64,000 nt of DNA from Ignavibacteriales bacterium. GTDB lineage: Bacteria; Bacteroidota; Ignavibacteria; Ignavibacteriales; Ignavibacteriaceae. Below, piece by piece: positions 441-64,000 of this stretch; position 1 is the first letter of the stretch; each line of letters opens with the position of its first letter. The translations under genes were made by a program, and so were the position numbers. The notes under the pieces were generated by a model, which was given only the letters and a program-made list of their open reading frames with translations, did no database searches and was not told the DNA's origin. Location of the stretch: NCBI GenBank assembly GCA_015709675.1, contig CP054182.1:434001-498000 (forward strand), in the 5' to 3' direction.

Positions 441-522
441 AGTCGAACACGATTTAAGGATTGTGAGGATAAACAGGATTTCGCCCCGCATAGGTGTACA
501 TTGTTCATTGTACATTGATTTC
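435..522. repeat. Direct repeat copy 2 (AGGATAAACAGGATT family)
   Basis: Second copy of the 313-388 repeat, beginning TCGGGGAGTCGAACACGATT. Its right end merges into three heptamers (GTACATT, GTTCATT, GTACATT; 496-516) that cover the stop codon of the minus-strand DUF433 gene. Confidence 0.7.
496..516 (-). repeat. Heptanucleotide repeat over the DUF433 stop codon
   Basis: Three in-phase heptamers read GTACATT-GTTCATT-GTACATT on the plus strand, i.e. AATGTAC-AATGAAC-AATGTAC in the sense of the minus-strand gene. The stop codon (complement of 505-507) lies inside the middle unit. This is one of about ten loci with heptamers at or near a gene 3' end. Confidence 0.55.
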
Positions 523-4860: not shown

Positions 4861-5580
4861 ATGAAAAAAATATATGTAATTACCCTTGCTCTTATACTCT
4901 CAGGAGTAATTTCAGAAAACACACTCGCCCAGACCGCGGGAGTGAATCTGACCCTTGCTTTTCCCCGCGGAAATTTTTACGCCAATAATAAAACCACCGG
5001 CATCGGCGGAAGTCTTGAAGGGATGTTCCTGACCGCAAAAGCAGGAGCGGTAAGCTACGGACTCGGCGGCAACGTAAGCTTTTTTACCTTTGGCAGCGAG
5101 GGAAGAGAAGCAGCATTCAGCAATACCATTCCTGATGTAACCGTGGATGTTGACCGCAGTTATAACCTGATGAATTTTCACGCAATGCTCCGTCTTTCAA
5201 CAAATAACACGCTGGTACGCCCCTATGCTGACGTACTCCTCGGAGCTTCATACTTATATACCAGCACCACCGTGCGAAATCAGCTTTCCGGTGAAGAGGT
5301 TACATCTTCCACCAATTTTGATGACTTTGCCTGGAGCTACGGCGCCGGAGCGGGTGTGATGATTAAGGTATATTCACCGAAAAATGAAGGGGATATTCCG
5401 GTATGGCTGGATATTAAAATGCGTTATCTGGTCGGAACCGAAGCTGACTACATTAAAAAAGGTGGCGTAAAGGTTGACGCAGCCAACGGCAAAGTATCAT
5501 ACGATATAACAACCTCCGAAACTGATATCCTGACCTTTAATATCGGCGTGAGCATACCGTTCAGCATGACAAATCTGTGA
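4861..5580 (+). CDS. Outer-membrane beta-barrel protein (porin-family/OmpA-barrel-like)
   Basis: The 239-residue product has a signal peptide (MKKIYVITLALILSGVISEN, cleavage after TLAQ). The rest alternates polar and aromatic or small residues in short strands, e.g. VSYGLGGNVSFFTFG, PYADVLLGASYLYTS and SYGAGAGVMIKVYS. Its last strand ends TFNIGVSIPFSM. This fits an 8-10-strand barrel of the general outer-membrane beta-barrel family. No OmpA peptidoglycan-binding domain is present, so it is a barrel only. The substrate is unknown. Ten perfect heptamers begin at the base after its stop codon. Confidence 0.75.
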   Translation: MKKIYVITLALILSGVISENTLAQTAGVNLTLAFPRGNFYANNKTTGIGGSLEGMFLTAKAGAVSYGLGGNVSFFTFGSEGREAAFSNTIPDVTVDVDRSYNLMNFHAMLRLSTNNTLVRPYADVLLGASYLYTSTTVRNQLSGEEVTSSTNFDDFAWSYGAGAGVMIKVYSPKNEGDIPVWLDIKMRYLVGTEADYIKKGGVKVDAANGKVSYDITTSETDILTFNIGVSIPFSMTNL

Positions 5581-5650
5581 TATGAATTATGAAATATGAA
5601 GTATGAATTATGAAATATGAAGTATGAATTATGAATTATGAATTATGAAT
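5581..5650 (+). repeat. Ten tandem TATGAAN heptamers directly after a stop codon
   Basis: The stretch divides exactly into ten units of seven: TATGAAT, TATGAAA, TATGAAG, TATGAAT, TATGAAA, TATGAAG and then TATGAAT four times. Unit 1 starts at the first base after the TGA of the barrel gene. Confidence 0.95.
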
Positions 5651-5700
5651 TGATGGGAGATTATCGGATATATTGATTCATACATTACAAAACACTGTAG

Positions 5701-5720
5701 AGCCACGCCGCGGCGTGGCT
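5701..5720. repeat. Perfect 20-bp palindrome (CACGCCGCGGCGTG core)
   Basis: AGCCACGCCGCGGCGTGGCT equals its own reverse complement and is flanked by TAG and TTAC. A sister palindrome with the same CACGCCGCGGCGTG core lies at 27407-27426. Each sits downstream of a minus-strand gene's stop (5799 and 27448). Confidence 0.8.
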
Positions 5721-5798
5721 TTACGGTTTTAAATATATTGTTGATTTCATATGCCCCAATAGAGAGATTGCATGCATCGTCTCTACAGATTGTAATTA

Positions 5799-9871: not shown

Positions 9872-11566
9872 ATGATCCTCATGCAACCCAGAACGCTACA
9901 CACACTTCTCGCGCATTCCTTAAAAACCTATCCCGCAAATCCGGCGATCGGATGGGTAGGTAAAAAGCCGGTCACTTATACTGAATTCGGCGATCAGATT
10001 TTCCGGCTCCAGAATACCCTCAAAGCCGCAGGGGTGAGAAAAGGAGACCGTGTTGCGCTCCTTGCTGAAAATATGCCCAACTGGCCGGTCTGTTATTTTG
10101 CCGTCACCACCATGGGAGCAGTTGCTGTTCCTGTAATGTATGACTTCAGCGCCGTTGAAATTGATTATATACTCCGTCACGCGAAAGTAAAAGTGCTTTT
10201 TGTCTCTTCAAAATATTTATCCAAGGTTGAAAATGATGATTATCCTTCGCTGACAAAAATATTCAACATGGATGAACTGACAGAGCTCTCCGTAAAAAAA
10301 GAAAACGGCTTTCTTGAGACTCTCGCCGAAGAAGGCAAAAAAAGTCTTGAAAAAATCCGCGATGCGGTCTTCGGTTCACAGGAGCAGGAAAGTGATTATA
10401 TTCCTTCCGAAGATGATATCTCCTCGCTGATATATACATCCGGCACCACGGGACACTCAAAGGGGGTTGTCCTCACCCATAAAAATATCGTCGCCAATGT
10501 ACTGGCCACGGTTGAGATGTCGGGCATTAAGCAGACCGATACGCTCCTTTCCATACTACCCCTTTCCCATACGTTTGAATGCACACTCGGAATGATAACT
10601 CCCGTCTATTCAGGCGCATGTATTTATTATCTGAACGGTATGCCGGTCCCCGCTGTTCTTCTCCCTGCTCTGCAGGAGGTAAAACCAACAATTATGATGT
10701 CTGTTCCTCTGATTATGGAGAAGATTTACCGCAATAAAATACTCCCTGCGTTTAAGAAGAGCGCAATCCTGCGTACACTTCACAAAGCGCCATTCATGAG
10801 GAAAGTGCTTCACAAAAAAGCGGGGCAGAAGCTCATGGAAACCTTTGGCGGAAGAATGCGGCTTTTCTGTATCGGCGGAGCTCCGCTGGCCGAAGACGCG
10901 GAGCAGTTTCTGCATGAAGGAAAGTTCCCTTATTCAGTCGGCTACGGCTTAACCGAAACTTCACCGCTGGTAACAGGCAATCCGTCAGAGACCTATAAAC
11001 CCCGCACGGTGGGAAGACCAATTCCCGGTGTGCAGGTAAGCATTCTTGATAAAGATCCTTCAACCCACATCGGCGAAATAGCCGTTAAGGGAGATAATGT
11101 GATGCCAGGTTATTATGAAGATGAGGCCAAAACCAGTGCGGTTTTCACTTCTGACGGCTGGTTCAGAACCGGAGATCTCGGCTTTATTGACAGCGAAGGA
11201 TATATACACATTAAGGGAAGAAGCAAGAATATGATTCTGGGTGCCAACGGAAAAAATATATACCCCGAAGAGATTGAAGCGCTTATCAATGAGCAGGAGT
11301 ATGTGCTGGAGTCACTGGTCTATGAGCAGGAAGGCAAGATCATGGCGCGGGTGCACTTCGACTATAAGGCTCTGGATGAACTTTTCACACCGCTTAAGCT
11401 GAGCGTTGTAGAAGCCGCGGCAGAAATCAAAAAGAAGCTTGAAGCAATAAAATCTGAAATCAATAGTAAAATACCATCATACGCGCAGCTTTCAGCATTC
11501 ATAGAACAAACCGACCCGTTCGAAAAAACTCCGACATTAAAGATCAAAAGATATCTATATCAATAG
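9872..11566 (+). CDS. Long-chain fatty-acid--CoA ligase / AMP-binding enzyme
   Basis: This 564-residue adenylate-forming enzyme has the P-loop-like motif YTSGTTGHSKG at 188-198. The motif YGLTETSP, the GWFRTGDLG motif and the IKGRSKNMILGANGKNIYPE lid region follow. It has the order and length of soluble long-chain acyl-CoA synthetases, which activate fatty acids with ATP and CoA through an acyl-adenylate. Starts at 9872 or 9881 (MQPRTLHTLL) are both possible; neither has a strong ribosome site. The last segment (KLKRYLYQ-like end with K in TLKIKRYLYQ) carries the expected late catalytic lysine region. Heptamers begin three bases after the stop. Confidence 0.88.
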   Translation: MILMQPRTLHTLLAHSLKTYPANPAIGWVGKKPVTYTEFGDQIFRLQNTLKAAGVRKGDRVALLAENMPNWPVCYFAVTTMGAVAVPVMYDFSAVEIDYILRHAKVKVLFVSSKYLSKVENDDYPSLTKIFNMDELTELSVKKENGFLETLAEEGKKSLEKIRDAVFGSQEQESDYIPSEDDISSLIYTSGTTGHSKGVVLTHKNIVANVLATVEMSGIKQTDTLLSILPLSHTFECTLGMITPVYSGACIYYLNGMPVPAVLLPALQEVKPTIMMSVPLIMEKIYRNKILPAFKKSAILRTLHKAPFMRKVLHKKAGQKLMETFGGRMRLFCIGGAPLAEDAEQFLHEGKFPYSVGYGLTETSPLVTGNPSETYKPRTVGRPIPGVQVSILDKDPSTHIGEIAVKGDNVMPGYYEDEAKTSAVFTSDGWFRTGDLGFIDSEGYIHIKGRSKNMILGANGKNIYPEEIEALINEQEYVLESLVYEQEGKIMARVHFDYKALDELFTPLKLSVVEAAAEIKKKLEAIKSEINSKIPSYAQLSAFIEQTDPFEKTPTLKIKRYLYQ

Positions 11567-11569
11567 AAT

Positions 11570-11597
11570 TATGAATGATGAAGTATGAATTATGATT
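11570..11597 (+). repeat. Heptamer repeats just after a stop codon
   Basis: TATGAAT, GATGAAG, TATGAAT and TATGATT follow the TAG at 11564-11566 after three bases. Same core and same sense orientation as 5581-5650. Confidence 0.8.
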
Positions 11598-11711
11598 TTG
11601 CTTACCGGGATAAATAGCAGCGCATTCCTTCAGGATGTCCTCTGATATTTATGGTAAAACCCCACCCGATATGCACTTGGACACCTCGTGACCTTTCCTG
11701 ATAAACAGAAT

Positions 11712-13775: not shown

Positions 13776-13833
13776 AAGGATATTAACGACTTTAAGGACA
13801 GCATGGACTTTATGTCAGAAGATTTTTTTCATC

Positions 13834-13882
13834 CTTCATTTTTCATTCTTCATTCTTCATTTTTCATTACGCATTATTCATT
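13834..13882 (-). repeat. Seven tandem heptamers (AATGAAN in minus sense)
   Basis: Plus-strand units are CTTCATT, TTTCATT, CTTCATT, CTTCATT, TTTCATT, ACGCATT, ATTCATT. In the sense of the minus-strand hybrid kinase they read AATGAAN and lie just past its terminator. Confidence 0.85.
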
Positions 13883-13885
13883 AAA

Positions 13886-14008: not shown

Positions 14009-17000
14009 TCACGCACCGCCGGTAAATATCTCTTCAAGTAACTGAAGAAGTTCGATCTGCCGGAAAGGCTTTGCCATATAATGAGTACAGCCGCCGTTCA
14101 GAAAATAACTGCGGTCATGCTGCATTGCATAAGCGGTCATCGCGATTACGGGAGTAGTATTGTTAAGACTGCCGCTCCTGATTCCCCTGGCCGCGGCAAG
14201 TCCGTCAACTCCTTTACCCAGATTTATATCCATCAGAACCGCCTCATACTGCTGCTCTCTGCTTTTCTCAATGGCAGATTCTCCGTCCCATACATGATCG
14301 GTTATATATTTTCCGTATAAAAACTTCTGAATGATTGTAGCATTCAGTTCATCATTTTCAACCAGCAGAATTCTTTTTCTTGCCGCTGTATGTATTTTTT
14401 CTTCATCAGCCAGTACAATATGTGCGTCTTCATTTTTCAGCTCATCGGTAACATCAGCGGGGAGGAAAACATGAAATACGGAGCCCCGCCCCTGTTCACT
14501 TTTCAGACTGATTGCGCCGCCAAGTTTTTCAACAAACTTCCTGGTAATTGACAGCCCGAGTCCGGTACCCTCATATCCGCGGTCGGTACCTTCTGACACC
14601 TGACGGAATTCATCAAAGATCATTTCATGATTTTCAGGTGCTATTCCTATTCCGGTATCTTCCACGCTTATTCTGATCATCTTTTTACCCGGCTCTGTTT
14701 CTTCAATGGCAGAAATTCGCACCGTGACTCCGCCGGTATGAGTATATTTCACCGCGTTATTAATAAGATTATTCACGATGCTGTTCAGCAGTCTTTCATC
14801 CGAGATGATTTTAAGATAATGGTATTCCGGTTCAAAATTGATATATAAACCGTTCCGCTCGGCTATTCCGGCAAAATTTTCCACGGCTTCGGATGTGATT
14901 TTAACCAGATCAACAGTTTCTTTTTTAATATCAAGCTTCCCTGCTTCAAGACGCGACATATCCAGAATCAGATTGAGTGTATCAAGAAGCCTCTTGCCGC
15001 TTTTATGAATCAGTTTTCCATATTCGGTAACCTCTTCATTGAAGCCGCCGTCATAGATAATTTCAGAATATCCCAGTACGCCAATCATGGGAGTCCGCAA
15101 TTCATGACTCATGTTGGCAAGAAAACTTGATTTCAGCCGGTTCATCTCTTCTGCCCGGTCTTTTGCTTCCGTCAGTTCTTTTTCCGTCCTCTTTATTGCC
15201 GTTATATCCTCATTGACGATAATGGCACCGGTCAATTCATTCTGTGCGTTAATGATGGGCACCGATGAATTGTAAATAATCTTTTTTGTTCCGTCAAAGC
15301 AGTCAATCTCAATCTCCTCGTTTATCGAAGTTTCCCTGTTTCTTATGGCCCGGGCAGCAGCCCACTCATCCGGCTGAATTTCTTTTCCGGTTTTGTACCA
15401 TCTTCCTTTATATTCGGCGAATTTATCTATCCCAACGTAACGCGCACCACCCCAGATCTTCATAGCGGCTTCATTGCCGCTGACTATCGTACCCTTCTCA
15501 TCCATAATCCATACACCAACAGGAAGTAGTTCCAGAACGTTGATGAACAATCGCACCTGGTTCTCAATAGTCTTCTGGTACTCCCGCATCTGTGTTATGT
15601 CATCTTTGATCGCAAGGTAGTTAACCGTCTGCCCTCGACTATTTCGGACAGGAGATATTGTTGCTGTTTCGTAGTATATATCACCGCATTTTCTTCTGTT
15701 TACAAATTCCCCTCTCCAGGAGTCTCCATTAATTAAATGTTGAAACAACTGAGTATATGTTTCACGCGGTGTAAGTCCGGACTGCAGAATTCGCGGATTC
15801 CGCCCCAATACCTCTTCTGCTTTGTAACCAGTCATGCTCTCGAAAGCTGGATTCACATATTCAATAGAGCCGTCAAGCGCCGTTATTAAAATGCTTGAAG
15901 AAGTCTGACTCACCGCTGCAAATAGCCGGTTTATCTCCGTCTGCTTCGCGGCAATCTCCGTTTCATCAATAAGCACACCAGCGTGTCCTATTATCTCTCC
16001 CCCTGAATAGATCGGTGAAGTTTTGCACCGCCAGAATATTTCTGTCCCATCCTGTCTGATAAGACTTCCTTCCGCGGCGAAGGATTTTTCCTCATGTATT
16101 GCTTCTGTCCATTTCATGAGCATTTGCCGCTTATCCTTCTGTTGAAGTATTCCCATCCAGGAATAATTTTCCAGTGAGTCCTCCTGTACGCCGGTAATCT
16201 GATGCATCAGTTTATTGCTGTAAGTCATTCTGCCTGCCGGATCAAGTATAAAAATGCCAGCGGGTGACTCCTCAACAACTGCCCTCAGTCGTGCATCGGT
16301 CATGCGGAACGATTCTTCCATATCAAAGAATTTCAGACCGAACGAAAGATCTTCGGCCATTTCATCAAGAAGATAGCGGTCATCCTCACCAAAGAAATCC
16401 TTTTTTTCCGAGATCAGAAGAACATAGAGCGGGGTTCCCCGTTTTACGCTGAGCTGCATAGCCGCGAAGGAGCCAATGTGCATTTTTGCTGACTCTTCAG
16501 GCGAAAGAAAATCCGCGCCGGTTATATCATTACAGTAAAAAACACTTCCGTCTGAAAATCCCGCGTTAAACTTTTCACTTTGCTTAAGCAGAAGTATTTC
16601 TGTTAATGATGCGCAGCCGTTGCTGAAGCCCACTTCTTTAATAGTTTCTGTAGTCTGATTGCCTGCTGTTCTTCCGATCCATACTCCCTTAAATTTTCCA
16701 ATCTGCACGGCAACCCGGATGATTTCTGAAAAAAGATCATCCGCGTTTGATTTTCTAACAATTGCTTTATTCGAAGCGCTGAGCATTGAGTAAAGACGAT
16801 TCAGACGCCTTATTTTCTTCTCGTGTTCTTTCCGCTCAGATATATCACGAACAATACTCTGATAAAAATAAGCTCCGTCAATTTGAAGCAGTTTCGCGCT
16901 TACTTCAACCGGAAATACTTCACCATCCTTCTTTTTGTGAAGAGTTTCAAAAGTTATTTCACCGGTTTTATGCAGCAAAGCAATCACCTCCTGCACGGAA

Positions 17001-18199
17001 ACACCCTCATCATTACCACGGATAATTTCAGCTGGTTTGCCTGCTAATTCCTCGAGGGTATATCCGTACTCTTTAAGAGCTTTCTGATTAGCTTCAGTAA
17101 TTTTTCCCGATTCATCCACAAGGAAAATTATGTCTCCCGAATTCTGCAGAATGTAATCATATTGTCTGAGCAATGCGTTTCGTCTGAGTTCTTCTTCATA
17201 AAGATGCAGATACATCTTCTTTTTCTCTTTTCTGTAGAACACGTCAAACCCAAATATAATGACACCGAAAAAGAGTAAGGCATATCCCGATATAAAGAAG
17301 ACACTATAAATTACCGGACGCATAAGCTCTGCTTTATCTGTTTTTACGGTAAGCGCCCAGTCGGTGTCCGGAATTCTTTTCAGGTAACTTATTACCTTTT
17401 CCCCCCGGTAATCCAATCCTTCTACAATCCTGTCCGCTTGAGCAAAAGCTTTAACGGCCACATAACTGCTGTCATGCGTGGATATCTTTAGTGAGAGTGC
17501 TGAATTCTTCCGGTGCCGCAGCTCATTAAGGTACACAATAGAATCCCTTTCCACCAGAGAGAGCGTGCTCTCTGACGTAAGACTTTCGTATGGCCAAGAG
17601 TCCAGCACAGGATAGAGTTCTTTATCCGGATTGATGCGGCCGAAGAAAAACAGATATGGTGTTTTTTGTTTTCCGGAATATTTGAAGAATGGAACAACCA
17701 GCGTGAGATGTATATGCCCGTTTTCATCTTTATGAAAATCAGATATGAAAGGCGCTAAAACTGAGTCCCCTTCTTTACAAATAGCATTTATCAAATCATC
17801 TGGTTTTGAATCCGTTCCGTAGGAAGGGAGTATTTCTTTACCTCCCCTGGAGCAGATGTGAATCCCTGAAAAACTGTATCTGCTGCTAATGACTGCCAGA
17901 TATTCTCTGAACATAGCAAGTTCCTGCTCGTCTGATTTTCCTTTACCAGTATAGTTTTCAGCAAACTGACGGACTTTGTCATCATAAAAAATTTCATCCG
18001 CCGCACGATAATAATTGTTCCGCCAGTTAATAATTTCATTCGCTTTATAATCAGCTATTACTTTAAGCTCCCGTTTCTGGGTGTTTTGTATCTGTTCTTT
18101 CTGATAAAAAAACAGCGCTGCCGCTACTATGCCAAGCAGAGTTGCGGCTACAGCTATTAATCTGAATAAGTTTTTTGTTTCAATTCTATTCGTGCTCAT
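14009..18199 (-). CDS. Multi-PAS hybrid sensor histidine kinase with C-terminal receiver
   Basis: The 1396-residue membrane protein begins with a transmembrane helix (about 11-31), an extracytoplasmic Cache-like sensor (about 32-295) with the phrase YLNELRHRKNSALSLKI, and a second helix (about 297-320). PAS (about 345-470), GAF (about 480-640) and three more PAS domains follow. HisKA has H1032 in NMSHELRTPM; HATPase ends with GTGLGLSITR. A receiver (about 1275-1396) has E1281/D1283, phospho-acceptor D1324, T1355 and K1377. The upstream gene 18236-18604 encodes a degenerate receiver 36 bp away. The intramolecular receiver suggests a phosphorelay, but no HPt protein is visible. The sensor region is paralogous to that of the kinase at 20017-23751. 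Confidence 0.9.
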   Translation of the reverse strand: MSTNRIETKNLFRLIAVAATLLGIVAAALFFYQKEQIQNTQKRELKVIADYKANEIINWRNNYYRAADEIFYDDKVRQFAENYTGKGKSDEQELAMFREYLAVISSRYSFSGIHICSRGGKEILPSYGTDSKPDDLINAICKEGDSVLAPFISDFHKDENGHIHLTLVVPFFKYSGKQKTPYLFFFGRINPDKELYPVLDSWPYESLTSESTLSLVERDSIVYLNELRHRKNSALSLKISTHDSSYVAVKAFAQADRIVEGLDYRGEKVISYLKRIPDTDWALTVKTDKAELMRPVIYSVFFISGYALLFFGVIIFGFDVFYRKEKKKMYLHLYEEELRRNALLRQYDYILQNSGDIIFLVDESGKITEANQKALKEYGYTLEELAGKPAEIIRGNDEGVSVQEVIALLHKTGEITFETLHKKKDGEVFPVEVSAKLLQIDGAYFYQSIVRDISERKEHEKKIRRLNRLYSMLSASNKAIVRKSNADDLFSEIIRVAVQIGKFKGVWIGRTAGNQTTETIKEVGFSNGCASLTEILLLKQSEKFNAGFSDGSVFYCNDITGADFLSPEESAKMHIGSFAAMQLSVKRGTPLYVLLISEKKDFFGEDDRYLLDEMAEDLSFGLKFFDMEESFRMTDARLRAVVEESPAGIFILDPAGRMTYSNKLMHQITGVQEDSLENYSWMGILQQKDKRQMLMKWTEAIHEEKSFAAEGSLIRQDGTEIFWRCKTSPIYSGGEIIGHAGVLIDETEIAAKQTEINRLFAAVSQTSSSILITALDGSIEYVNPAFESMTGYKAEEVLGRNPRILQSGLTPRETYTQLFQHLINGDSWRGEFVNRRKCGDIYYETATISPVRNSRGQTVNYLAIKDDITQMREYQKTIENQVRLFINVLELLPVGVWIMDEKGTIVSGNEAAMKIWGGARYVGIDKFAEYKGRWYKTGKEIQPDEWAAARAIRNRETSINEEIEIDCFDGTKKIIYNSSVPIINAQNELTGAIIVNEDITAIKRTEKELTEAKDRAEEMNRLKSSFLANMSHELRTPMIGVLGYSEIIYDGGFNEEVTEYGKLIHKSGKRLLDTLNLILDMSRLEAGKLDIKKETVDLVKITSEAVENFAGIAERNGLYINFEPEYHYLKIISDERLLNSIVNNLINNAVKYTHTGGVTVRISAIEETEPGKKMIRISVEDTGIGIAPENHEMIFDEFRQVSEGTDRGYEGTGLGLSITRKFVEKLGGAISLKSEQGRGSVFHVFLPADVTDELKNEDAHIVLADEEKIHTAARKRILLVENDELNATIIQKFLYGKYITDHVWDGESAIEKSREQQYEAVLMDINLGKGVDGLAAARGIRSGSLNNTTPVIAMTAYAMQHDRSYFLNGGCTHYMAKPFRQIELLQLLEEIFTGGA

Positions 18200-24025: not shown

Positions 24026-24060
24026 GTTCATACTTCATACCTCAGAATTCATGCTTCAAA
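24026..24060 (-). repeat. Heptamers spanning the stop codon of the CSD gene
   Basis: In minus sense the units are TTTGAAG, CATGAAT, TCTGAGG, TATGAAG and TATGAAC. The TGA stop (complement of 24042-24044) lies in unit 3, so the last codons of the gene (LKHEF) are made of heptamer sequence. Confidence 0.7.
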
Positions 24061-24581
24061 ACGTCTTCATACCAGAACGGCTTCGGTTCTTTGCCCTCCA
24101 GCGCTTTAATATCCAGAATCTCCAGAAAGCGCTGATATTCATCTCTGGATATATACGGAAGTATGGTAGTGGGGAGATTTTTTACTTTCTGAGAGCTTAA
24201 GACGGCATCAATCTGCTCCCGGCTCAGGTGACTCCCCTTTTTTAGTTCATCAAACGCATAGAGCAGGTCATAAAGATTAATGGTACCCATGCTGAATTCA
24301 CCGATAATCCTCTCTGCAAATCCGGGAATCAGTTCCGCGGGCACATCTGAAAGCAGATACCATATCTTATCAGCCTTCCGTTTTCCGTTGGGCTGAAGTT
24401 TTGAGATAAAGTAGATGATAAAATCCCCCCGCTTCATGTGGTTGAGTTTTTCCCTGAAATCCTCCTTGCGAATCTGGGAAAAATGGAAGAAGATATCGCC
24501 CGGGTAATTAAGACTTTTAAGAAACCCGAACCCCTTTTCGTCAATTTTTTTAACCCGGCAAAAATCCAGCGGTTCGCTCAT
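24042..24581 (-). CDS. Cold-shock-domain protein with C-terminal helical extension
   Basis: The 179-residue protein starts with a cold-shock domain (about 8-70). GFGFLKSLNYPGDIFFHFSQ matches RNP1 (K-G-F-G-F-I) and RNP2 (V-F-V-H-F), the single-strand nucleic-acid binding strips. About 110 residues follow with helical stretches (ELIPGFAERIIGEFSMGTIN, LSREQIDAVLSSQKV) and no recognised family. CspA-type proteins are about 70 residues, so this is a long variant, probably an RNA-binding regulator with a second, unknown activity. Its 3' end is overrun by heptamers. Confidence 0.7.
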   Translation of the reverse strand: MSEPLDFCRVKKIDEKGFGFLKSLNYPGDIFFHFSQIRKEDFREKLNHMKRGDFIIYFISKLQPNGKRKADKIWYLLSDVPAELIPGFAERIIGEFSMGTINLYDLLYAFDELKKGSHLSREQIDAVLSSQKVKNLPTTILPYISRDEYQRFLEILDIKALEGKEPKPFWYEDVLKHEF

Positions 24582-24917: not shown

Positions 24918-24924
24918 GTTTGGG

Positions 24925-24994
24925 GTGCTTGGTGCTTGGTGCTTAGTTTTTGGTTCTTGGTTCTTGGTTCTTGGTTCGTAGTTCTTAGTGTTTG
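24925..24994 (+). repeat. Ten tandem GTNCTTG-type heptamers after a stop codon
   Basis: The units are GTGCTTG twice, GTGCTTA, GTTTTTG, GTTCTTG three times, GTTCGTA, GTTCTTA and GTGTTTG. It differs in sequence from the TATGAAN family but has the same period and the same place, just past a gene's stop. Confidence 0.85.
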
Positions 24995-25001
24995 GTGATC
25001 C

Positions 25002-27298
25002 GGTCATACGCTCCGTGCATTCAATGGGGTTGGGGTTTGGATCGTTTTCTATTATCCGGTCATATGTTTCGCATATTTAATGAACCCGCGTAGCGGGTAA
25101 CCCGTTAATAGAAAGGCATCACAAAATGATATCCCAGAACCCGCAGCGCGGGTGACCCATTTATTTTTCGGTCAAACGCTATGCGCATTCATTAAAACCC
25201 GCGGAGCGGGTGTCCCATTAATAGAAACACATCACAAAATAAAATCACACGAACCCGCAGCGCGGGTGACCCATTTGTTTTTCGGTCATACGCTGCGCGC
25301 ATTCATGCAAACCCGCGTAGCGGGTGTCCCATTAATAGAAACATATCACAAAATAAAATCACTAGAACCCGCAGCGCGGGTGACCCATTTGTTTTTCGGT
25401 CATACGCTGCGCGCATTCATGCAAACCCGCGGAGCGGGTGTTCCATTAATAGAAACACATCACAAAATAAAATTACCTGAACCCGCATCGCGGGTGACCC
25501 ATTTGTTTTTCGGTCATACGCTGCGCGCATTCATGCAAACCCGCGGAGCGGGTGTCCTATTAATAGAAACATATCACAAAATAAAATTACCTGAACCCGC
25601 AGCGCGGGTGACCCATTTGTTTTTCGGTCATACGCTGCCGCATTCATTAAAACCCGCATCCTGGATGTCCCGTTTATTAATTTATCATTTGCTATGCGCA
25701 TTCATTAAAACCCGCGGAGCGGGTGTCCCATTAATAGAAACATATCACAAAATAAAATTACCTGAACCCGCAGCGCGGGTGACCCATTTGTTTTTCGGTC
25801 AGCGCTGCGCGCATTCATGCAAACCCGCGGAGCGGGTGTCCCATTAATAGAAATACATCACAAAATAAAATTACCTGAACCCGCAGCGCGGGTGACCCAT
25901 TTGTTTTTCGGTCATACGCTACGCGCATTCAAAGGGGTTGGGGTTTCATCATATCCTATTAATTAGTCATGCGCAACGCGCATTTATGCAAACCCGCATC
26001 TTGGGTGTCCCTTTTATTAATTGGTCATACGCTGCGCACATTCATGCAAACCCGCGGAGCGGGTGTCCCATTAATAGAAACATATCACAAATAAAATTAC
26101 CTGAACCCGCAACGCGGGTGACCCATTTGTTTTTCGGTCATACGCTGCGCGCATTCAAAGGGGTTGGGGTTTCATTATATCCTATTAATTGGTCATACGC
26201 TACGCGCATTCAGTAAAACCTGCGTAGCGGGTAACCCATTAATAGAAACACATTACAAAATAAAATTACCTGAACCGGCAGCGCGGGTGACCCATTTATT
26301 TTTCGGTCATACGCTGCGCGCATTCAATAAAACCCGCGGAGCGGGTGTCCTATTAATAGAAACACATCACAAAATAAAATCACACGAACCCGCAGCGCGG
26401 GTGACCCATTTATTTTCGGTCAAACGCTGCGCGCATTCAAAGCGGTTGGGGTTTCATCACATCCTATTAATTGGTCATACGCTACGCGCATTCATTAAAA
26501 CCCGCGGAGCGGGTGTCCCATTAATAGAAACACATCACAAAATAAAATTACACGAACCCGCAGCGCGGGTGACCTATTTGTTCTTCGGTCATACGCTGCG
26601 CGCATTCAATTAAACCCGCGGAGCGGGTGTCCCATTAATAGATACACATCACAAAATAAAATTACCTGAACCCGCAGCGCGGGTGACCCATTTGTTTTCG
26701 GTCAAACACTACGCGCATTCAATAAAACCCGCATCCTGGATGTCTCGTTTATTAATTGATCATTCGCTATGCGCATTCATTAAAACCCACATCTTGGGTG
26801 TCCCCTTTATTAATCCGTCATACGCTACGTGTATTCAATAAAACCCGCGGAGCGGGTGTCCCATTAATAGAAACACATTACAAAATAAAATTACACGAAC
26901 CCGCAGCGCGGGTGACCCATTTGTTCTTCGGTCAACGCTGCGCGCATTCAAAGGGGTTGGGGTTTCATCATATCCTATTAATTGGTCATGCGCTACTCGC
27001 ATTCATGCAAACCCGTATCCTGGATGTCCCGTTTATTAATTGATCATTCGCTATGCGCATTCATGCAAACCCGCGGAGCGGGTGTCCCATTAATAGAAAC
27101 ACATTACAAAATAAAATTACCTGAACCCGCAGCGCGGGTGACCCATTTTTTTTCGGTCATACGCTGCGCGCATTCATTAAAACCCGCGGAGCGGGTGTCC
27201 TAATAATAGAAACATATCACAAAATTAAATCACACGAACCCGCAGCGCGGGTGACCCATTTGTTTTTCGGCCATACGCTGCCGCATTCATTTAATTTC
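25002..27298. repeat. 2.3-kb tandem array of ~57-bp palindromic modules
   Basis: Roughly 35-40 modules of about 57 bp follow one another. Most begin with a 15-bp hairpin core, ACCCGC-N3-GCGGGT. Type A has loop AGC and continues GTGACCCATTTGTTTTTCGG, TCATACGCTGCGCGCATTCA. Type B has loop GGA (sometimes GTA) and continues GTGTCCCATTAATAGAAACA, CATCACAAAATAAAATTACC. Types A and B usually alternate, giving a 114-bp higher-order unit. Two rarer types replace the core: one with AAAGGGGTTGGGGTTT (near 25030, 25935, 26158, 26440, 26950), one with ACCCGCATCCTGGATGT (near 25652, 26727, 27011). Because 114 is a multiple of three, chance frames with a 38-residue repeat appear, but 1-2 bp length changes break them. 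No cas genes, transposase or ribosome sites are nearby. Confidence 0.95.
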
Positions 27299-29744: not shown

Positions 29745-30791
29745 ATGAAGAAAAGCTTATATATATTCTTACTGCTCACGGCAGCGGCGTTCGCGCAGGT
29801 AACACTTGACTCACGGAAAATACCGGCGGCAGGTGACCGTGTGTATATCATTGAGGCCGATGAAAGCGGGGTTGACAGCATGGCCGGAGGAGCAAATAAA
29901 CTCTGGGATTTCAGTTCGCTATATATCTCAGATAATTTTGTCACCATGAAATATGTTACCCCGGCTGAAACTCCTTTTAGTGATGAATTCCCCGGAGCAA
30001 ACCTTGCGGCATATACCGAAGAACTCGCCGAGTTAGCCGGATATCTTTACTATTACGGAACCACCTCCAATCTTGACCTTATCGGCATCAGAAGCGTGCT
30101 CTATCCGGAACGCTACGAAGACGCAAGCAGGCTGTTAAACGCACCATTCGGTTACGGCTCATTGCTCTCCGACGAATACGCCACGGAAGCGGAGCTTGAA
30201 GGTGTTACCATTATTAAAAGAGGAACAAGAACTCTCACCGGTGATGCTTACGGCACACTCATCCTCCCCGGTAAGGAGCCTGTTGAAGTGCTCAGAGTAA
30301 AATCAGTTGATGAAGTAAAGACCATGTACTATTACGGTGAACTTGAAGTCGGTTCGGATAATCTGCTTTCAACCAGCTATACCTGGTATGATCAGAGCGG
30401 AAAATTCCCCCTCTTAAACGTTATCGAAACCGTAAGCTGGAATGATGAAGATACCCTTACTTCACGTTATGCTGAAGTATATACAGAAGATACCCCAACC
30501 AATGTAAAGGAGCCGGAATTGTTTCCGATGAAAGCTGAATTACGGCAGAATTATCCAAATCCGTTTAACCCCGCGACCGAGATCAGATTCTCTGTTGACC
30601 GTCCGGGCAATGTATCACTGCAGGTATATGATATACTGGGCAATAAAGTAGCAGATCTGGTGAACGGATACCATGAGGCTGGCAACCACAGCGTGCGCTT
30701 TGACGCAAGCGGCCTCAGCAGCGGAACCTACTTCTATGTTCTGAACGCAAGCGGTACCGTCCTCAGCCGCAAAATGGCGTTATTGAAGTAA
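29745..30791 (+). CDS. Secreted protein of unknown function with T9SS type-A tail
   Basis: The 348-residue product has a signal peptide (MKKSLYIFLLLTAAAFAQ) and GGAAAAAGGAC just upstream of the start as ribosome site. The body (about 20-255) is beta-rich, with WDFSSLYISDNFVTMKYVTP and TMYYYGELEVGSDNLLSTSY, and matches no family I recognise. The tail is NYPNPFNPATEIRFSVDRPG, ending SRKMALLK, for T9SS export and surface attachment. A strong terminator follows, so the gene is probably monocistronic. Confidence 0.8.
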   Translation: MKKSLYIFLLLTAAAFAQVTLDSRKIPAAGDRVYIIEADESGVDSMAGGANKLWDFSSLYISDNFVTMKYVTPAETPFSDEFPGANLAAYTEELAELAGYLYYYGTTSNLDLIGIRSVLYPERYEDASRLLNAPFGYGSLLSDEYATEAELEGVTIIKRGTRTLTGDAYGTLILPGKEPVEVLRVKSVDEVKTMYYYGELEVGSDNLLSTSYTWYDQSGKFPLLNVIETVSWNDEDTLTSRYAEVYTEDTPTNVKEPELFPMKAELRQNYPNPFNPATEIRFSVDRPGNVSLQVYDILGNKVADLVNGYHEAGNHSVRFDASGLSSGTYFYVLNASGTVLSRKMALLK

Positions 30792-30795
30792 GAAT

Positions 30796-30809
30796 TATGA
30801 AGTATGAAC
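30796..30809 (+). repeat. Two TATGAAN heptamers after a stop codon
   Basis: TATGAAG and TATGAAC follow the TAA at 30789-30791 after four bases. Confidence 0.6.
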
Positions 30810-38423: not shown

Positions 38424-38942
38424 ATGAGGTACATAACACTTTTTGGCAGCTCCCTTCCTTCCGAAGGGGATGAACAGTACACCATCGCTTATGAAACAGG
38501 ACGGAGGATTGCTGAAGCGGGATTTGGAGTCTGTTCCGGCGGCAACAAAGGCATCATGGAAGCAGCCTCCCGCGGGGCTGTTGAGGCTGGAGGTGAAGCA
38601 TTGGGTATAACAGTTTCAGCTTTTCCGAATTCAAACCCATATCTCACATCAAAGATTGAGTGCCCCTCCCTTTTTGAACGCATTACCAGACTTATAGAAT
38701 ATGGCGATGCATATATCATTCTGCAGGGGGGAACCGGCACCCTGCTTGAGCTTTCAGCCGTGTGGGAACTGATTAATAAAGGCCTCCTTCCGAGAAAACC
38801 CGCGGCGGCACATTCCCCTCTCTGGAGCAATATCATCCCCCTGATGGAAGAACAGATAATCCGCGAAGGCAGGTTAACAGGATTGGTCAGAACATTTGAT
38901 GATCACCGCGCAATGACGGAATATATACTCGGTGAATTATGA
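38424..38942 (+). CDS. LOG-family / TIGR00725-like nucleotide-sugar-bond hydrolase homologue
   Basis: The 172-residue Rossmann-like protein has VCSGGNKGIMEAASRGAVEA (matching the GGG-x-G-LM-G region of LOG proteins) and the catalytic motif L-Q-G-G-T-G-T-L-L-E at 100-109. LOG-type phosphoribohydrolases release cytokinin-like bases from nucleoside monophosphates, while TIGR00725 members are of uncertain role. The SGG-N-K variation places it nearer the latter. Heptamers start at its stop codon. Confidence 0.75.
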   Translation: MRYITLFGSSLPSEGDEQYTIAYETGRRIAEAGFGVCSGGNKGIMEAASRGAVEAGGEALGITVSAFPNSNPYLTSKIECPSLFERITRLIEYGDAYIILQGGTGTLLELSAVWELINKGLLPRKPAAAHSPLWSNIIPLMEEQIIREGRLTGLVRTFDDHRAMTEYILGEL

Positions 38943-38965
38943 AGTATGAAGTATGAATTATGAAT
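38938..38965 (+). repeat. Four TATGAAN heptamers containing a stop codon
   Basis: TATGAAG, TATGAAG, TATGAAT and TATGAAT; the gene's TGA (38940-38942) is inside unit 1. Confidence 0.8.
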
Positions 38966-39124
38966 TTCCGGGGTATCGTATTCTGCGATAGCTTCTTCCT
39001 CTGCGTTAATCTGCGAAATCTGCGGGAAAATTCTTCCTCTGCGTTAATCTGCTTTAAACTTCTGCCTCTGCTATACTCTGCAAAACAACCTGCTTACTCT
39101 GCATGTAATATCCCTAAAACAAAA

Positions 39125-60463: not shown

Positions 60464-60491
60464 ATTCATACTTCACAATTTATCATTCATA
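60464..60491 (-). repeat. Heptamers just after the yidC stop
   Basis: In minus sense the units are TATGAAT, GATAAAT, TGTGAAG and TATGAAT, about ten bases after the yidC stop codon. Confidence 0.6.
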
Positions 60492-60501
60492 ATTATTTAA
60501 G

Positions 60502-62376
60502 CTATTTCCTTTTTTTTGCTGCTGCCTGCTGCTGCTTGGCCTTTTGCTCTGCTGCGGTCATCAGTTTCTGGAAGAAACCTCCTTTTGCTTTCGGCGGTAC
60601 AGGCACCAGTTCAACCGGCTTGCCGTATTTGGTAACATACCACTGCTGGCCGATTGAGAAAAGGTTAAAGAGGAAATAATAGAGGTTAAGTCCTGACGGA
60701 AAACTCATAAAAAGAATGGTGAGCATCACCGGCATGATATATAACAATGGCGCCTGTGAAGGGTCCTTTGCAGCGCCGGACATCTTCTGCTGCAGATAGG
60801 TGGTAATACCCATCAGTATTGCAAGACCGCTGATTTCCTGCACACCAAAAAGCGGTATCTTAAAACCAAGATCAAAAATCACATCCGGACGGGAAAGGTC
60901 AGTAATCCACCATACAAACGGCTGCTGACGAAGTTCAACCGCGGTCTGGAAGGTACCCCAGAGCGCAATAAAGATCGGCATCTGAAGCAGCAGCGGCAGA
61001 CATCCTCCGAGAGGATTGATGCCGTAGGTACTGTAAAGTTTCATGGTTTCAGACTGCTGTTTCTGTGGATCGTCCTTGAACTTCTCCTTCATCTCATCAA
61101 TTTTCGGCTTCAGCGCCTGCATTTTTTTCATTGAGTCCATGGTCTGCTTGGTGAGCGGATTCAGGAGCACCTTGATAATCAGGGAGAAGATGATAATAAC
61201 CAGACCGTAATTCTTTATCAGATCATACAGAAAGTTAAAGAGAGGAAGCAGTATATATTCCGCGATGGGGCGGACAATCATCTTCAGGCCGAAAAAGCTT
61301 CCGAAATCAACAATGGTGGTCAGTCCGCGGTTATAGCTGTCCAGGATTTCATACTTCACCGGTCCGATATATACCATAAAGCTGCTGGTTTCTGCCTTGC
61401 CCCCCTTAAAAGGCATTTTCAGATGTGCTGAATAAAACTCCCTCACGCCCCCCTGCTCGTATCCGCCCGCCTTGCCTGATATATACGCGCCGTCAACCCC
61501 TTTTGGATTATCCGGCACCATAACGGCGGCGAAATATTTATTGCGGACGGTGATCCAGTCCACTCGTCCGTTAAAATCCTGCTCAACGGTTTCACCCGGG
61601 CTGGCAGCGTCCACGATTACCTGTTCGTCACCGTAATAAACGCTGGCGTTGGCCGCGGTTGCTTCATCCACGGAATTTTCCTCTACAAACCGGATACCGC
61701 CGCCCCATACGATATCATAAGCCCGATTTGAAATAACATCGTCTAGGTTGTTAAGCTCAAGCGTAAAGCGGCTGTCATAACGGTTGCCGTAAATAACAAA
61801 ATTCTTTATAATGCTTCCTTTCCCGTCGGCGGTAGGAAGAGTATAACTCAGGACAAGAGAATCATTCCCCTTCAGCGTATAATTGCCCGGGGCAAGCGAT
61901 GAAGCAAATCGTATATCGCCGGTGGAAATTTTTCTGCCGTCGGTGGTTATAAAGCTCAGGTCAAAACTGCTGCCGCGGTTGGTGTTAAGAAGCTGAATGT
62001 TTTTCTGATAATAGGGGGCATTCTCCGGAAGATCGTCTATATACCAGTTGTTAAACTCTTTCAGGAAGTACTTATAAAACTTTCCTCCCTTTTCGCTCAT
62101 TTCGATATATAAAAGATCCGTCTCAATGCGGATAAGACCAGGGGTGCCGGAGTTGTTGGCGAAGTGCTTTCCGAAAGGCATTGAATCATTTTCAGCGGGA
62201 ACCTGAGCCGTAACCGGTTTTTCCTTTTCTGCTGCTTTGGTGCCGTTGAGCGAATCAACCGTCTGTTCTTTTGACTGATCCTGAGGAGGCGGCTGCGGGG
62301 GAGGGGTCTGTATATAGAGCCACACCATCAGGATAAGTCCTATAAGCAGGAACGCTAAGGTGGTTTGTCTGTCCAT
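60502..62376 (-). CDS. yidC: Membrane protein insertase YidC
   Basis: The 624-residue protein has an N-terminal helix (about 5-25), a large periplasmic beta-supersandwich domain (about 50-345) and the five-helix insertase core (about 355-600). The core includes YGLVIIIFSLIIKVLLNPLT, then MKKMQALKPKIDEMKEKFKD, and GINPLGGCLPLLLQMPIFIA with the family-conserved G-C-L-P. It ends in a Lys/Gln-rich tail. It inserts and folds inner-membrane proteins alone or with Sec. Order yidC-yidD-rnpA-rpmH is the ancestral one. Confidence 0.97.
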   Translation of the reverse strand: MDRQTTLAFLLIGLILMVWLYIQTPPPQPPPQDQSKEQTVDSLNGTKAAEKEKPVTAQVPAENDSMPFGKHFANNSGTPGLIRIETDLLYIEMSEKGGKFYKYFLKEFNNWYIDDLPENAPYYQKNIQLLNTNRGSSFDLSFITTDGRKISTGDIRFASSLAPGNYTLKGNDSLVLSYTLPTADGKGSIIKNFVIYGNRYDSRFTLELNNLDDVISNRAYDIVWGGGIRFVEENSVDEATAANASVYYGDEQVIVDAASPGETVEQDFNGRVDWITVRNKYFAAVMVPDNPKGVDGAYISGKAGGYEQGGVREFYSAHLKMPFKGGKAETSSFMVYIGPVKYEILDSYNRGLTTIVDFGSFFGLKMIVRPIAEYILLPLFNFLYDLIKNYGLVIIIFSLIIKVLLNPLTKQTMDSMKKMQALKPKIDEMKEKFKDDPQKQQSETMKLYSTYGINPLGGCLPLLLQMPIFIALWGTFQTAVELRQQPFVWWITDLSRPDVIFDLGFKIPLFGVQEISGLAILMGITTYLQQKMSGAAKDPSQAPLLYIMPVMLTILFMSFPSGLNLYYFLFNLFSIGQQWYVTKYGKPVELVPVPPKAKGGFFQKLMTAAEQKAKQQQAAAKKRK

Positions 62377-63523: not shown

Positions 63524-63544
63524 CCAATTGTTCATTGTAATTTG
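63524..63544 (-). repeat. Heptamers directly after the ugd stop
   Basis: In minus sense the bases after the TAA read CAAATTA, CAATGAA, CAATTGG. This is a degenerate member of the 3'-end heptamer family. Confidence 0.4.
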
Positions 63545-64000
63545 TTAATTAACCTTTGGTCTTCCGATGCTGTAATAGGTAAACCCGAGCTCCCTCATCT
63601 TGGAGGGCTCGTAAACATTCCTTCCGTCAAAGATCAGCTTGTTTTTCAGCCCGTCGTAAAGCTTTTTATAATCAGGGTTGCGGAACTCATTCCACTCCGT
63701 CAGTATCAGCAGGGCATCAGCATCCTTAAGCGCGTCATACTCATTCTCTGTATATATAACTGAGTCACCAAGGAAAAATTTCGCCTGCTCCATAGCAGCG
63801 GGATCGTATGCTTTAATCACCGCGCCCTCAGAGAGCAGTTTCTGAATAATCGGAATTGACGGAGCCTCGCGCATGTCATCGGTATTTGGTTTGAATGCCA
63901 GTCCCCATACAGCCAGCGTCTTACCCTGCAGAATACCGCCGAAGTGATCAAGCACTTTCTTTGGAAGAACCAGTTTCTGGGCATGGTTTACTTCATCCAC
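63545..64000 (-). CDS. UDP-glucose 6-dehydrogenase, C-terminal part
   Basis: The frame enters from the right edge and gives 152 codons including the stop. It has KTLAVWGLAFKPNTDDMREA, PSIPIIQKLL and the end KNKLIFDGRNVYEPSKMREL-GF, the C-terminal UDP-binding domain of the UDPGDH family. The full enzyme oxidises UDP-glucose to UDP-glucuronate with two NAD+. The N-terminal NAD domain and catalytic cysteine are outside the window. Related UDP-ManNAc dehydrogenases share this domain, but the NTDDMREAPS phrase favours UDP-glucose. Confidence 0.9.
   Translation of the reverse strand: MDEVNHAQKLVLPKKVLDHFGGILQGKTLAVWGLAFKPNTDDMREAPSIPIIQKLLSEGAVIKAYDPAAMEQAKFFLGDSVIYTENEYDALKDADALLILTEWNEFRNPDYKKLYDGLKNKLIFDGRNVYEPSKMRELGFTYYSIGRPKVN

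What the first reader, a model, noticed from the sequence alone, without database searches (positions are those of the whole stretch)
5581..5650. ATGAA-core heptanucleotide repeats grow from gene stop codons in sense orientation
Seven-base tandem units sit on or within about 12 bases of the stop codon at nine loci: 496-516, 5581-5650, 11570-11597, 24026-24060, 24925-24994, 30796-30809, 38938-38965, 60464-60491 and 63524-63544. A tenth (13834-13882) lies just past a terminator. Both plus- and minus-strand genes show the ATGAA core in their own sense direction, except 24925-24994, which has another sequence (GTTCTTG). At 496, 24026 and 38938 the stop codon is inside a unit. At 24026 the last codons are heptamer-derived, so the repeat changes the protein end. 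Heptameric STRR repeats are known from filamentous cyanobacteria; a stop-codon-linked, strand-specific set like this I do not know.
Basis: partly seen in the sequence, partly recalled or inferred. Interest (0 to 1): 0.8.

Follow-up and report, generated by a model that had tools for sequence, protein, structure and literature searches.

The report
Inward-facing seven-base repeats edging gene gaps
In this bacterial genome, runs of seven-base repeats sit at the edges of the gaps between genes and mostly read away from the nearest gene; a similar rule was reported before for G-rich repeats, but the main repeats here are too poor in G to form the four-stranded structure proposed then.

Summary
In an evenly spaced 47% sample, period-7 arrays number 154, against 0-14 for other periods (93 at period 14). 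Arrays adjoin gene stops 80 times versus 16 expected, and starts 6 times versus 17.5. At stops the ATGAA core is sense 28 times, antisense once.

The stop codon is not the anchor. Arrays face inward from both edges of intergenic gaps in every gene arrangement (118 of 129). Beside starts, 31 of 37 lie 44-247 bp upstream, and most point away from the gene. The rule needs no motif: the G-richer strand reads away from the nearest gene (110 versus 20). It also holds in stretches from several phyla, mostly Bacteroidota (113 versus 28).

Rehm et al. 2015 reported a very similar placement for G-rich heptamers in Xanthomonas and Nostoc and raised G-quadruplexes. The main units here carry one G, so quadruplexes cannot be the general cause.

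Best explanation (confidence 0.4): DNA copying that extends outward from the edges of functional blocks, pruned by selection. This genome has no RVT_1 reverse transcriptase match, which argues against RNA-templated addition. A selected RNA-level role remains open. Verdict: new variant of a known kind.

The parts
495..517 (-). TGTACAA/TGAACAA array containing the TGA of a minus-strand DUF433 gene
5581..5651 (+). Ten-unit TTATGAA/GTATGAA array starting at the base after the TGA of gene 4861-5580 (weak OMP beta-barrel hit, below Pfam's cut-off); genus-mate G001 has three units at the same place
11566..11598 (+). TTATGAA-type array at the TAG of gene 9881-11566 (AMP-binding enzyme)
13828..13883 (-). 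AATGAAG/AATGAAA-type array about 126 bp past the stop of minus-strand gene 14009-18199; a terminator-like hairpin lies between them (by eye)
24027..24058 (-). Degenerate TATGAA-type array holding the stop and last codons of minus-strand gene 24042-24581 (cold-shock domain)
24924..24997 (+). GTTCTTG/GGTGCTT array in the gap upstream of the 24042-24581 gene, not at a supported stop; G-richer strand on + (by eye) reads away from that gene
30784..30809 (+). Short TTATGAA/GTATGAA array at the TAA of gene 29745-30791 (T9SS sorting domain PF18962)
38933..38966 (+). TTATGAA/GTATGAA array with the TGA of gene 38424-38942 inside a unit
60464..60491 (-). Degenerate TATGAA/TGTGAA array about 11 bp past the TAG of the YidC-like minus-strand gene 60502-62376
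63524..63544 (-). Weak TTACAA/TGAACAA array directly past the TAA of the minus-strand gene 63545-64000

Best explanation
The arrays mark the edges of functional blocks (a gene with its promoter) and read 5' to 3' away from the block on the G-richer strand. I propose that a directional DNA-level copying process lays them down and lengthens them. During fork or break repair inside an intergenic gap, the 3' end of a flank anneals by a few bases of microhomology to heptamer sequence, copies whole units by slippage or template switching, and is rejoined. Selection removes outcomes that enter coding or promoter DNA, so surviving arrays begin at the stop codon or upstream of the promoter. Two treated flanks give a facing pair. 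Sense orientation at stops is then a by-product of which side of the gene the gap lies on. Shown: placement, orientation, motif independence, whole-unit length change between genus-mates, arrays kept at the same edge in the gaps compared, and no RVT_1 match in this genome. Inferred: the priming step, its enzymes, the position of promoters and the role of selection.
For: Inward rule in all four gap types: +- 41/45, ++ 33/36, -- 38/42, -+ 6/6. Pre-specified ATGAA core alone: 64 of 70 inward, 24 of 25 where the nearest gene end is a start. Orientation learned on half the stretches predicts the other half: 67 of 72 (1 more undecided) and 50 of 60. Motif-free rule: G-richer strand outward 110 v 20, 3 ties; start side 33 v 4; arrays without the core 48 v 13, 2 ties; 548 control stops without arrays 244 v 244, 60 ties. 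Genus-mate G001: 23 v 5, 1 tie. Stretches from several phyla: 113 v 28, 6 ties. The first unit is in register with the stop in 32 of 77 (11 expected by chance). The window array has 10 units in G000 and 3 in G001. In 10 of 10 aligned gaps both species keep an array at the same edge, while inner spacer sequence is often unalignable. At one edge the units are TTGTGAA-type in G000 and TTATGAA-type in G001, so position can outlast unit identity. Terminator-like hairpins are as frequent with arrays as without (19/88 v 127/581) but farther from the stop (median 76 v 22 nt), so arrays lie between stop and terminator.
Against: No copying event was seen and no enzyme identified. Register with the stop is partly automatic when the stop lies inside the array. 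Long retention at one edge also fits selected function. An identical stretch of at least 31 bp recurs at five loci with four different flanks, which points to block dispersal rather than local growth. 11 of 129 arrays break the orientation rule and 20 of 133 have the C-richer strand outward. Six of 37 start-side arrays lie within 10 bp of the called start, not beyond a promoter. In G001 the start side alone is only 5 v 3. In the Bacteroidota loci the ATGAA strand at close stops is only 21 inward v 12 outward, and Lentisphaerae are 1 of 8 inward. Three mid-gap arrays of one G000 gap are absent from G001, and one G001 array has only a degenerate counterpart in G000 (L268).
Confidence: 0.4

Rival explanations
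1. Selected RNA-level element: each array is read as RNA leaving a transcription unit (the mRNA 3' UTR, and divergent transcripts upstream of promoters) and bounds it by binding a protein, stabilising the end or limiting spurious expression.
For: Sense orientation at stops and position before the terminator; an array kept at the same edge in both species in 10 of 10 gaps compared; most repeats in Xanthomonas axonopodis pv. citri were found transcribed (PMC4692102, abstract and discussion read).
Against: Unit sequence differs between genes and can change at one edge, which is hard for a sequence-specific binder. Terminator-like hairpins are equally frequent with and without arrays. Many start-side arrays begin only 44-75 bp from the called start, leaving little room for a divergent transcript (inference; no transcript data).
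Confidence: 0.27
2. Ordinary replication slippage of seven-base units with selection against intrusion into genes and promoters; nothing directional.
For: Heptamers were the most abundant long simple repeats in most repeat-rich genomes (Mrazek et al. 2007 as cited in PMC4679880, introduction read); whole-unit length change.
Against: Slippage alone predicts no strand bias; the bias is 118 of 129 and 110 v 20.
Confidence: 0.13
3. Stop-codon element: arrays grow from stop codons, perhaps supplying back-up stops in every frame.
For: Most sense-strand unit types hold TGA, TAA or TAG (by sequence); the first unit is often in register with the stop.
Against: 37 of 133 placeable arrays have a start, not a stop, as the nearest gene end. 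TGTACAA units hold no stop codon, yet are sense at 4 of 5 stops (sequence).
Confidence: 0.08
4. Dispersed repeat moved by a transposase, for example a REP-type Y1 transposase.
For: Identical stretch of at least 31 bp at five loci; four Y1_Tnp matches in G000.
Against: Y1_Tnp matches occur in 19 of 21 genomes searched, while the ATGAA pattern was found in 3 of 59. Target duplications were not systematically sought.
Confidence: 0.08
5. RNA-templated, telomerase-like addition by a reverse transcriptase.
For: Orientation resembles telomeres (recalled: G-strand 3' end outward) and facing pairs resemble end fusions. Array-bearing G001 has two RVT_1 matches.
Against: The single-contig G000 genome (98.4% complete) has no RVT_1 match.
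Confidence: 0.04

Closest known systems
G-rich heptamer repeats GGGAATC (Xanthomonas) and GGGGA(C/T)T (Nostoc sp. PCC 7120), Rehm et al. 2015, PMC4692102
   Same: Seven-base units; mostly intergenic; within 50 bp of stops on the sense strand and upstream of ORFs on the antisense strand; nearer to the 5' neighbour whatever its direction; 70 (Xcc) and 75 (Xac) convergent pairs; conserved locations.
   Different: There the units are G-rich and form G-quadruplexes in vitro. Here the outward strand is 41% A, 35% T, 19% G and 5% C, the main units have one G, and several unit families coexist. Facing pairs are few in Nostoc by their account. The motif-free G-strand test and the gap-type breakdown are done here.
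TAACTGA direct repeats of marine Beggiatoaceae, Cyanobacteria and some Bacteroidetes, MacGregor 2015, PMC4679880
   Same: Heptamer tandem repeats, intergenic, scattered taxonomic distribution, sometimes mixed with other heptamers; of 24 sets mapped in Microcystis, eight lie between stop codons.
   Different: In the BOGUAY genome most lie just upstream of start codons in forward orientation; here starts are avoided (6 v 17.5 expected).
STRR repeats of filamentous cyanobacteria (Mazel et al. 1990; recalled, not read)
   Same: Heptanucleotide tandem repeats between genes.
   Different: I know no orientation rule for STRR beyond the Nostoc data of Rehm et al.
Telomere repeats (recalled)
   Same: G-richer strand runs 5' to 3' outward; facing pairs look like fused ends.
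   Different: Internal to a bacterial chromosome held as one contig; no RVT_1 match in the genome.

Membership tests
Heptameric simple sequence repeats (LSSR/STRR class) | Tandem 7-bp units in excess of other periods | tested here: met
   154 period-7 segments v 0-14 for the other periods 2-15 bar 14
Heptameric simple sequence repeats (LSSR/STRR class) | Mainly intergenic; change length by whole units | tested here: met
   whole-unit change seen at the window locus
Rehm-type G-rich heptamers | Sense within 50 bp of the stop, antisense upstream of ORFs | tested here: met
   but start-side arrays lie mostly at 44-151 bp rather than 0-50 bp
Rehm-type G-rich heptamers | Runs of three or four G per unit, G-quadruplex forming | tested here: not met
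   Main units TTATGAA and TTAGTAA hold one G each; outward strand 18.7% G. Some minor units (TGGTGAA, TTAGGAA) hold GG; no folding test was made
TAACTGA repeats (MacGregor) | Unit TAACTGA just upstream of start codons | tested here: not met
   Arrays avoid starts; no TAACTGA-class array assigned in the G000 sample
Telomerase-type repeats | Templating reverse transcriptase | tested here: not met
   0 RVT_1 matches in G000
REP/BIME elements | Palindromic unit with a cognate Y1 transposase | tested here: inconclusive
   Y1_Tnp matches present; array units are not palindromic; a REP-like palindrome lies near the window array

The most novel reading that the evidence does not exclude
A general, unrecognised directional process in many bacterial phyla writes heptamer tracts outward from the edges of gene blocks, with the G-richer strand leading, whatever the unit sequence and without a reverse transcriptase. 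Sequence-specific explanations such as G-quadruplexes or protein sites would then be secondary.
Probability: 0.3. Interest if true: 0.85.

Novelty: new variant of a known kind. Interest (0 to 1): 0.6.

Why it matters
If the rule is general, it separates period and strand from sequence. A published observation discussed in terms of G-quadruplexes would become a special case of a wider directional process that shapes intergenic DNA in distant phyla. It also gives a simple computable test (which strand, which edge) for any genome, and a way to study how bacterial spacers grow and turn over.

Tried and rejected
Replichore orientation: at first seemed to show one strand per chromosome half; one search listed both strands in the same half, so I dropped it.

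Reverse-transcriptase templating: no RVT_1 match in G000.

Y1 transposase as distinguishing agent: too widespread.

Arrays as terminators: terminator-like hairpins are equally frequent with and without arrays.

Artefact check: an ORF running into a stop-rich array must end there. Against this being the whole story: TTAGTAA arrays also hold TAA on the antisense strand, yet are sense at 17 of 17 stops; many arrays start after the stop, several behind recurrent gene endings that look to me like T9SS sorting-domain ends (only one such window gene was checked by Pfam); and the start-side rule needs no stop.

Circularity check: my orientation words were learned from stop-side arrays, so I repeated the test with the pre-specified core, with split halves, and with G minus C only.

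Rows dropped: 21 of 154 arrays at stretch ends, and 4 unoriented; 45 edge, 18 central and 9 in-ORF arrays of 219; 38 edge arrays of 155; 4 edge arrays of 33.

Gene calls are my own and miss short genes such as the DUF433 gene; and one search use crude longest ORFs.

Full report
WHAT IS THERE. The window is bases 434001-498000 of a 4,212,902-base single-contig genome. One of eight window proteins scanned has a type IX secretion sorting domain. Of ten genomes behind named loci searched with its 16S gene, seven gave a match, four of them full-length; the best full-length match was an Ignavibacteria MAG at 80% identity. I place it only loosely, in or near Bacteroidota. Eight of the nine stop-linked loci are at supported gene ends; the 24925 array is not.

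GENOME-WIDE TEST. I took 100 evenly spaced 20-kb stretches, trained a simple gene caller on them (1427 genes, 85% coding) and searched for tandem periods. Period 7 gives 154 segments; the other periods between 2 and 15 give 0-14, except 93 at period 14. Arrays adjoin stops 80 times, against 16.0 expected for random intergenic placement, and starts 6 times, against 17.5. Of 669 stops with at least 60 bp of non-coding DNA after them, 104 carry a lag-7 run of score 8 or more, while lags 4-6 and 8-11 give 0-4; for 707 starts the figures are 16 and 0-5. Several unit families share the behaviour at stops: TTATGAA/GTATGAA, TTGTGAA/TGGTGAA, TTAGTAA/TTAGCAG/TTAGGAA, TGTACAA/TGAACAA, TTGATAA/TGGATAA and AATGAAG.

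THE RULE IS ABOUT GAP EDGES. When every oriented array with two known neighbours is placed in its gap, plus arrays lie nearer the left edge and minus arrays nearer the right edge in convergent, codirectional and divergent gaps alike: 118 of 129. For 37 arrays the nearest gene end is a start: 6 lie within 10 bp, none at 11-43 bp, and 31 at 44-247 bp, 28 of these at 44-151 bp. The larger group is about where a promoter would end; this is inference, since promoters were not mapped. Of 22 gaps with several arrays, 18 face inward; in one convergent gap two opposed arrays meet and fill it (L151, 96286). The rule survives three checks against circularity: the pre-specified ATGAA core (64 of 70), split-half training (67 of 72 and 50 of 60), and a motif-free test in which the G-richer strand reads away from the nearest gene 110 to 20 with 3 ties, against 244 to 244 with 60 ties at stops without arrays.

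COMPARISON WITH RELATIVES. A four-unit ATGAA pattern was found in 3 of 59 genomes searched: G000, G001 and G022. The reversed control pattern hit eight of the 59, which suggests other heptamers there. In genus-mate G001 the rule holds overall (23 v 5, 1 tie, from 33 arrays in 566,777 bases), though its start side alone is 5 v 3; part of that DNA was chosen because it held arrays. Of 159 arrays queried (154 of the sample and 5 of the window, partly the same), 14 had collinear flanks in the G001 DNA held. They fall in 10 distinct gaps, and in 10 of 10 both species have an array at the same edge. The window array has ten units in G000 and three in G001, both beginning at the stop, with closely similar sequence following. 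At L191 1789309 the units are TTGTGAA-type in G000 and TTATGAA-type in G001, while three mid-gap arrays of that G000 gap are missing in G001. In the other direction, the G001 array at L268 has only a degenerate counterpart in G000.

SEVERAL PHYLA. With crude ORFs the ATGAA strand is inward in 82 and outward in 35 of 117 placeable arrays (155 in all); at close stops in Bacteroidota it is 21 v 12. The G-strand rule gives 113 v 28 with 6 ties, and 28 v 8 with 6 ties for arrays without the core, where Cyanobacteria alone are 5 v 4. Lentisphaerae are odd: 1 of 8 by ATGAA strand. Reading ten of their arrays shows composite elements with opposed heptamer families. Period 7 dominates in these stretches too, with unit sequences that often differ from those of G000.

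CHROMOSOME POSITION. Array density falls, not evenly, from 0.89 per kb of intergenic DNA near the GC-skew minimum to 0.00 near the maximum (Spearman -0.57, p 5e-10, n = 100 stretches). If the minimum is the replication origin, arrays avoid the terminus. dnaA lies at 1.199 Mb, not at the minimum, and tRNA strands are mixed, so this assignment is tentative.

HOW IT MAY WORK. Stop-codon function cannot explain start-side arrays. Quadruplexes cannot explain units with one G. Terminator-like hairpins are as frequent with arrays (19 of 88) as without (127 of 581) but lie farther from the stop (median 76 v 22 nt), so arrays sit inside the likely 3' UTR and do not replace terminators. No RVT_1 match is present in G000, though G001 has two. 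I therefore favour a DNA-level copying process that extends outward from block edges, with selection removing intrusions, at confidence 0.4. A selected RNA-level role is the main rival.

LITERATURE. Rehm et al. 2015 (PMC4692102; abstract, passages and sections 10, 13 and 16 read) reported very similar placement for G-rich heptamers in three genomes and could not assign a role. MacGregor 2015 (PMC4679880; abstract and sections 3, 10 and 24 read) described TAACTGA heptamers, mostly before start codons in Beggiatoaceae. In a 2025 survey of short tandem repeats (PMC12699852; one term search of the main text) the words heptanucleotide and stop codon do not occur. In the listings, judged by title and start of abstract, I saw no paper reporting the rule for AT-rich heptamers; the listings are capped (one search showed 20 of 6,394) and the library holds only open-licence papers.

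Noticed in passing
window 25083-27291: A 2.2-kb tandem array of about 114-bp units built on the palindromes AACCCGCGGAGCGGGT and AACCCGCAGCGCGGGT (28 matches, none expected). Related palindromes lie in the gap at L241 3887344 and its G001 counterpart.
   Followed up: partly
L149-L248 (sampled genome): Heptamer array density falls, unevenly, from the GC-skew minimum (0.64 Mb) to zero around the maximum (2.71 Mb), Spearman -0.57; dnaA is at neither point.
   Followed up: partly
window 39000-39071; gaps shown: Gaps also hold other degenerate short-word repeats of about 10 bases (TCTGCG, TTTGCG, GCAGATTAACGCAGA words), possibly oriented too.
   Followed up: no
L163 604625 and 607967, L161 513168, L162 554899, L171 942163: An identical TTAGTAA-type stretch of at least 31 bp directly at the stop at five loci; 604625 and 607967 share one gene ending, the other flanks differ.
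   Followed up: partly
stop-side arrays: Within arrays, ATGAA-type units tend to be gene-proximal and GTGAA-type units distal (11 a-to-g against 4 g-to-a transitions); TTAGTAA blocks often precede TGTACAA blocks.
   Followed up: partly
L031, L032, L036, L056, L061, L062, L148: Two Lentisphaerae MAGs carry dispersed composite elements in which opposed heptamer families lie side by side.
   Followed up: no
window 5700-5790 and L278: REP-like palindrome GTAGAGCCACGCCGCGGCGTGGCTTTAC downstream of the 5581 array, once in G000 and again, with one near-copy, in G001.
   Followed up: no
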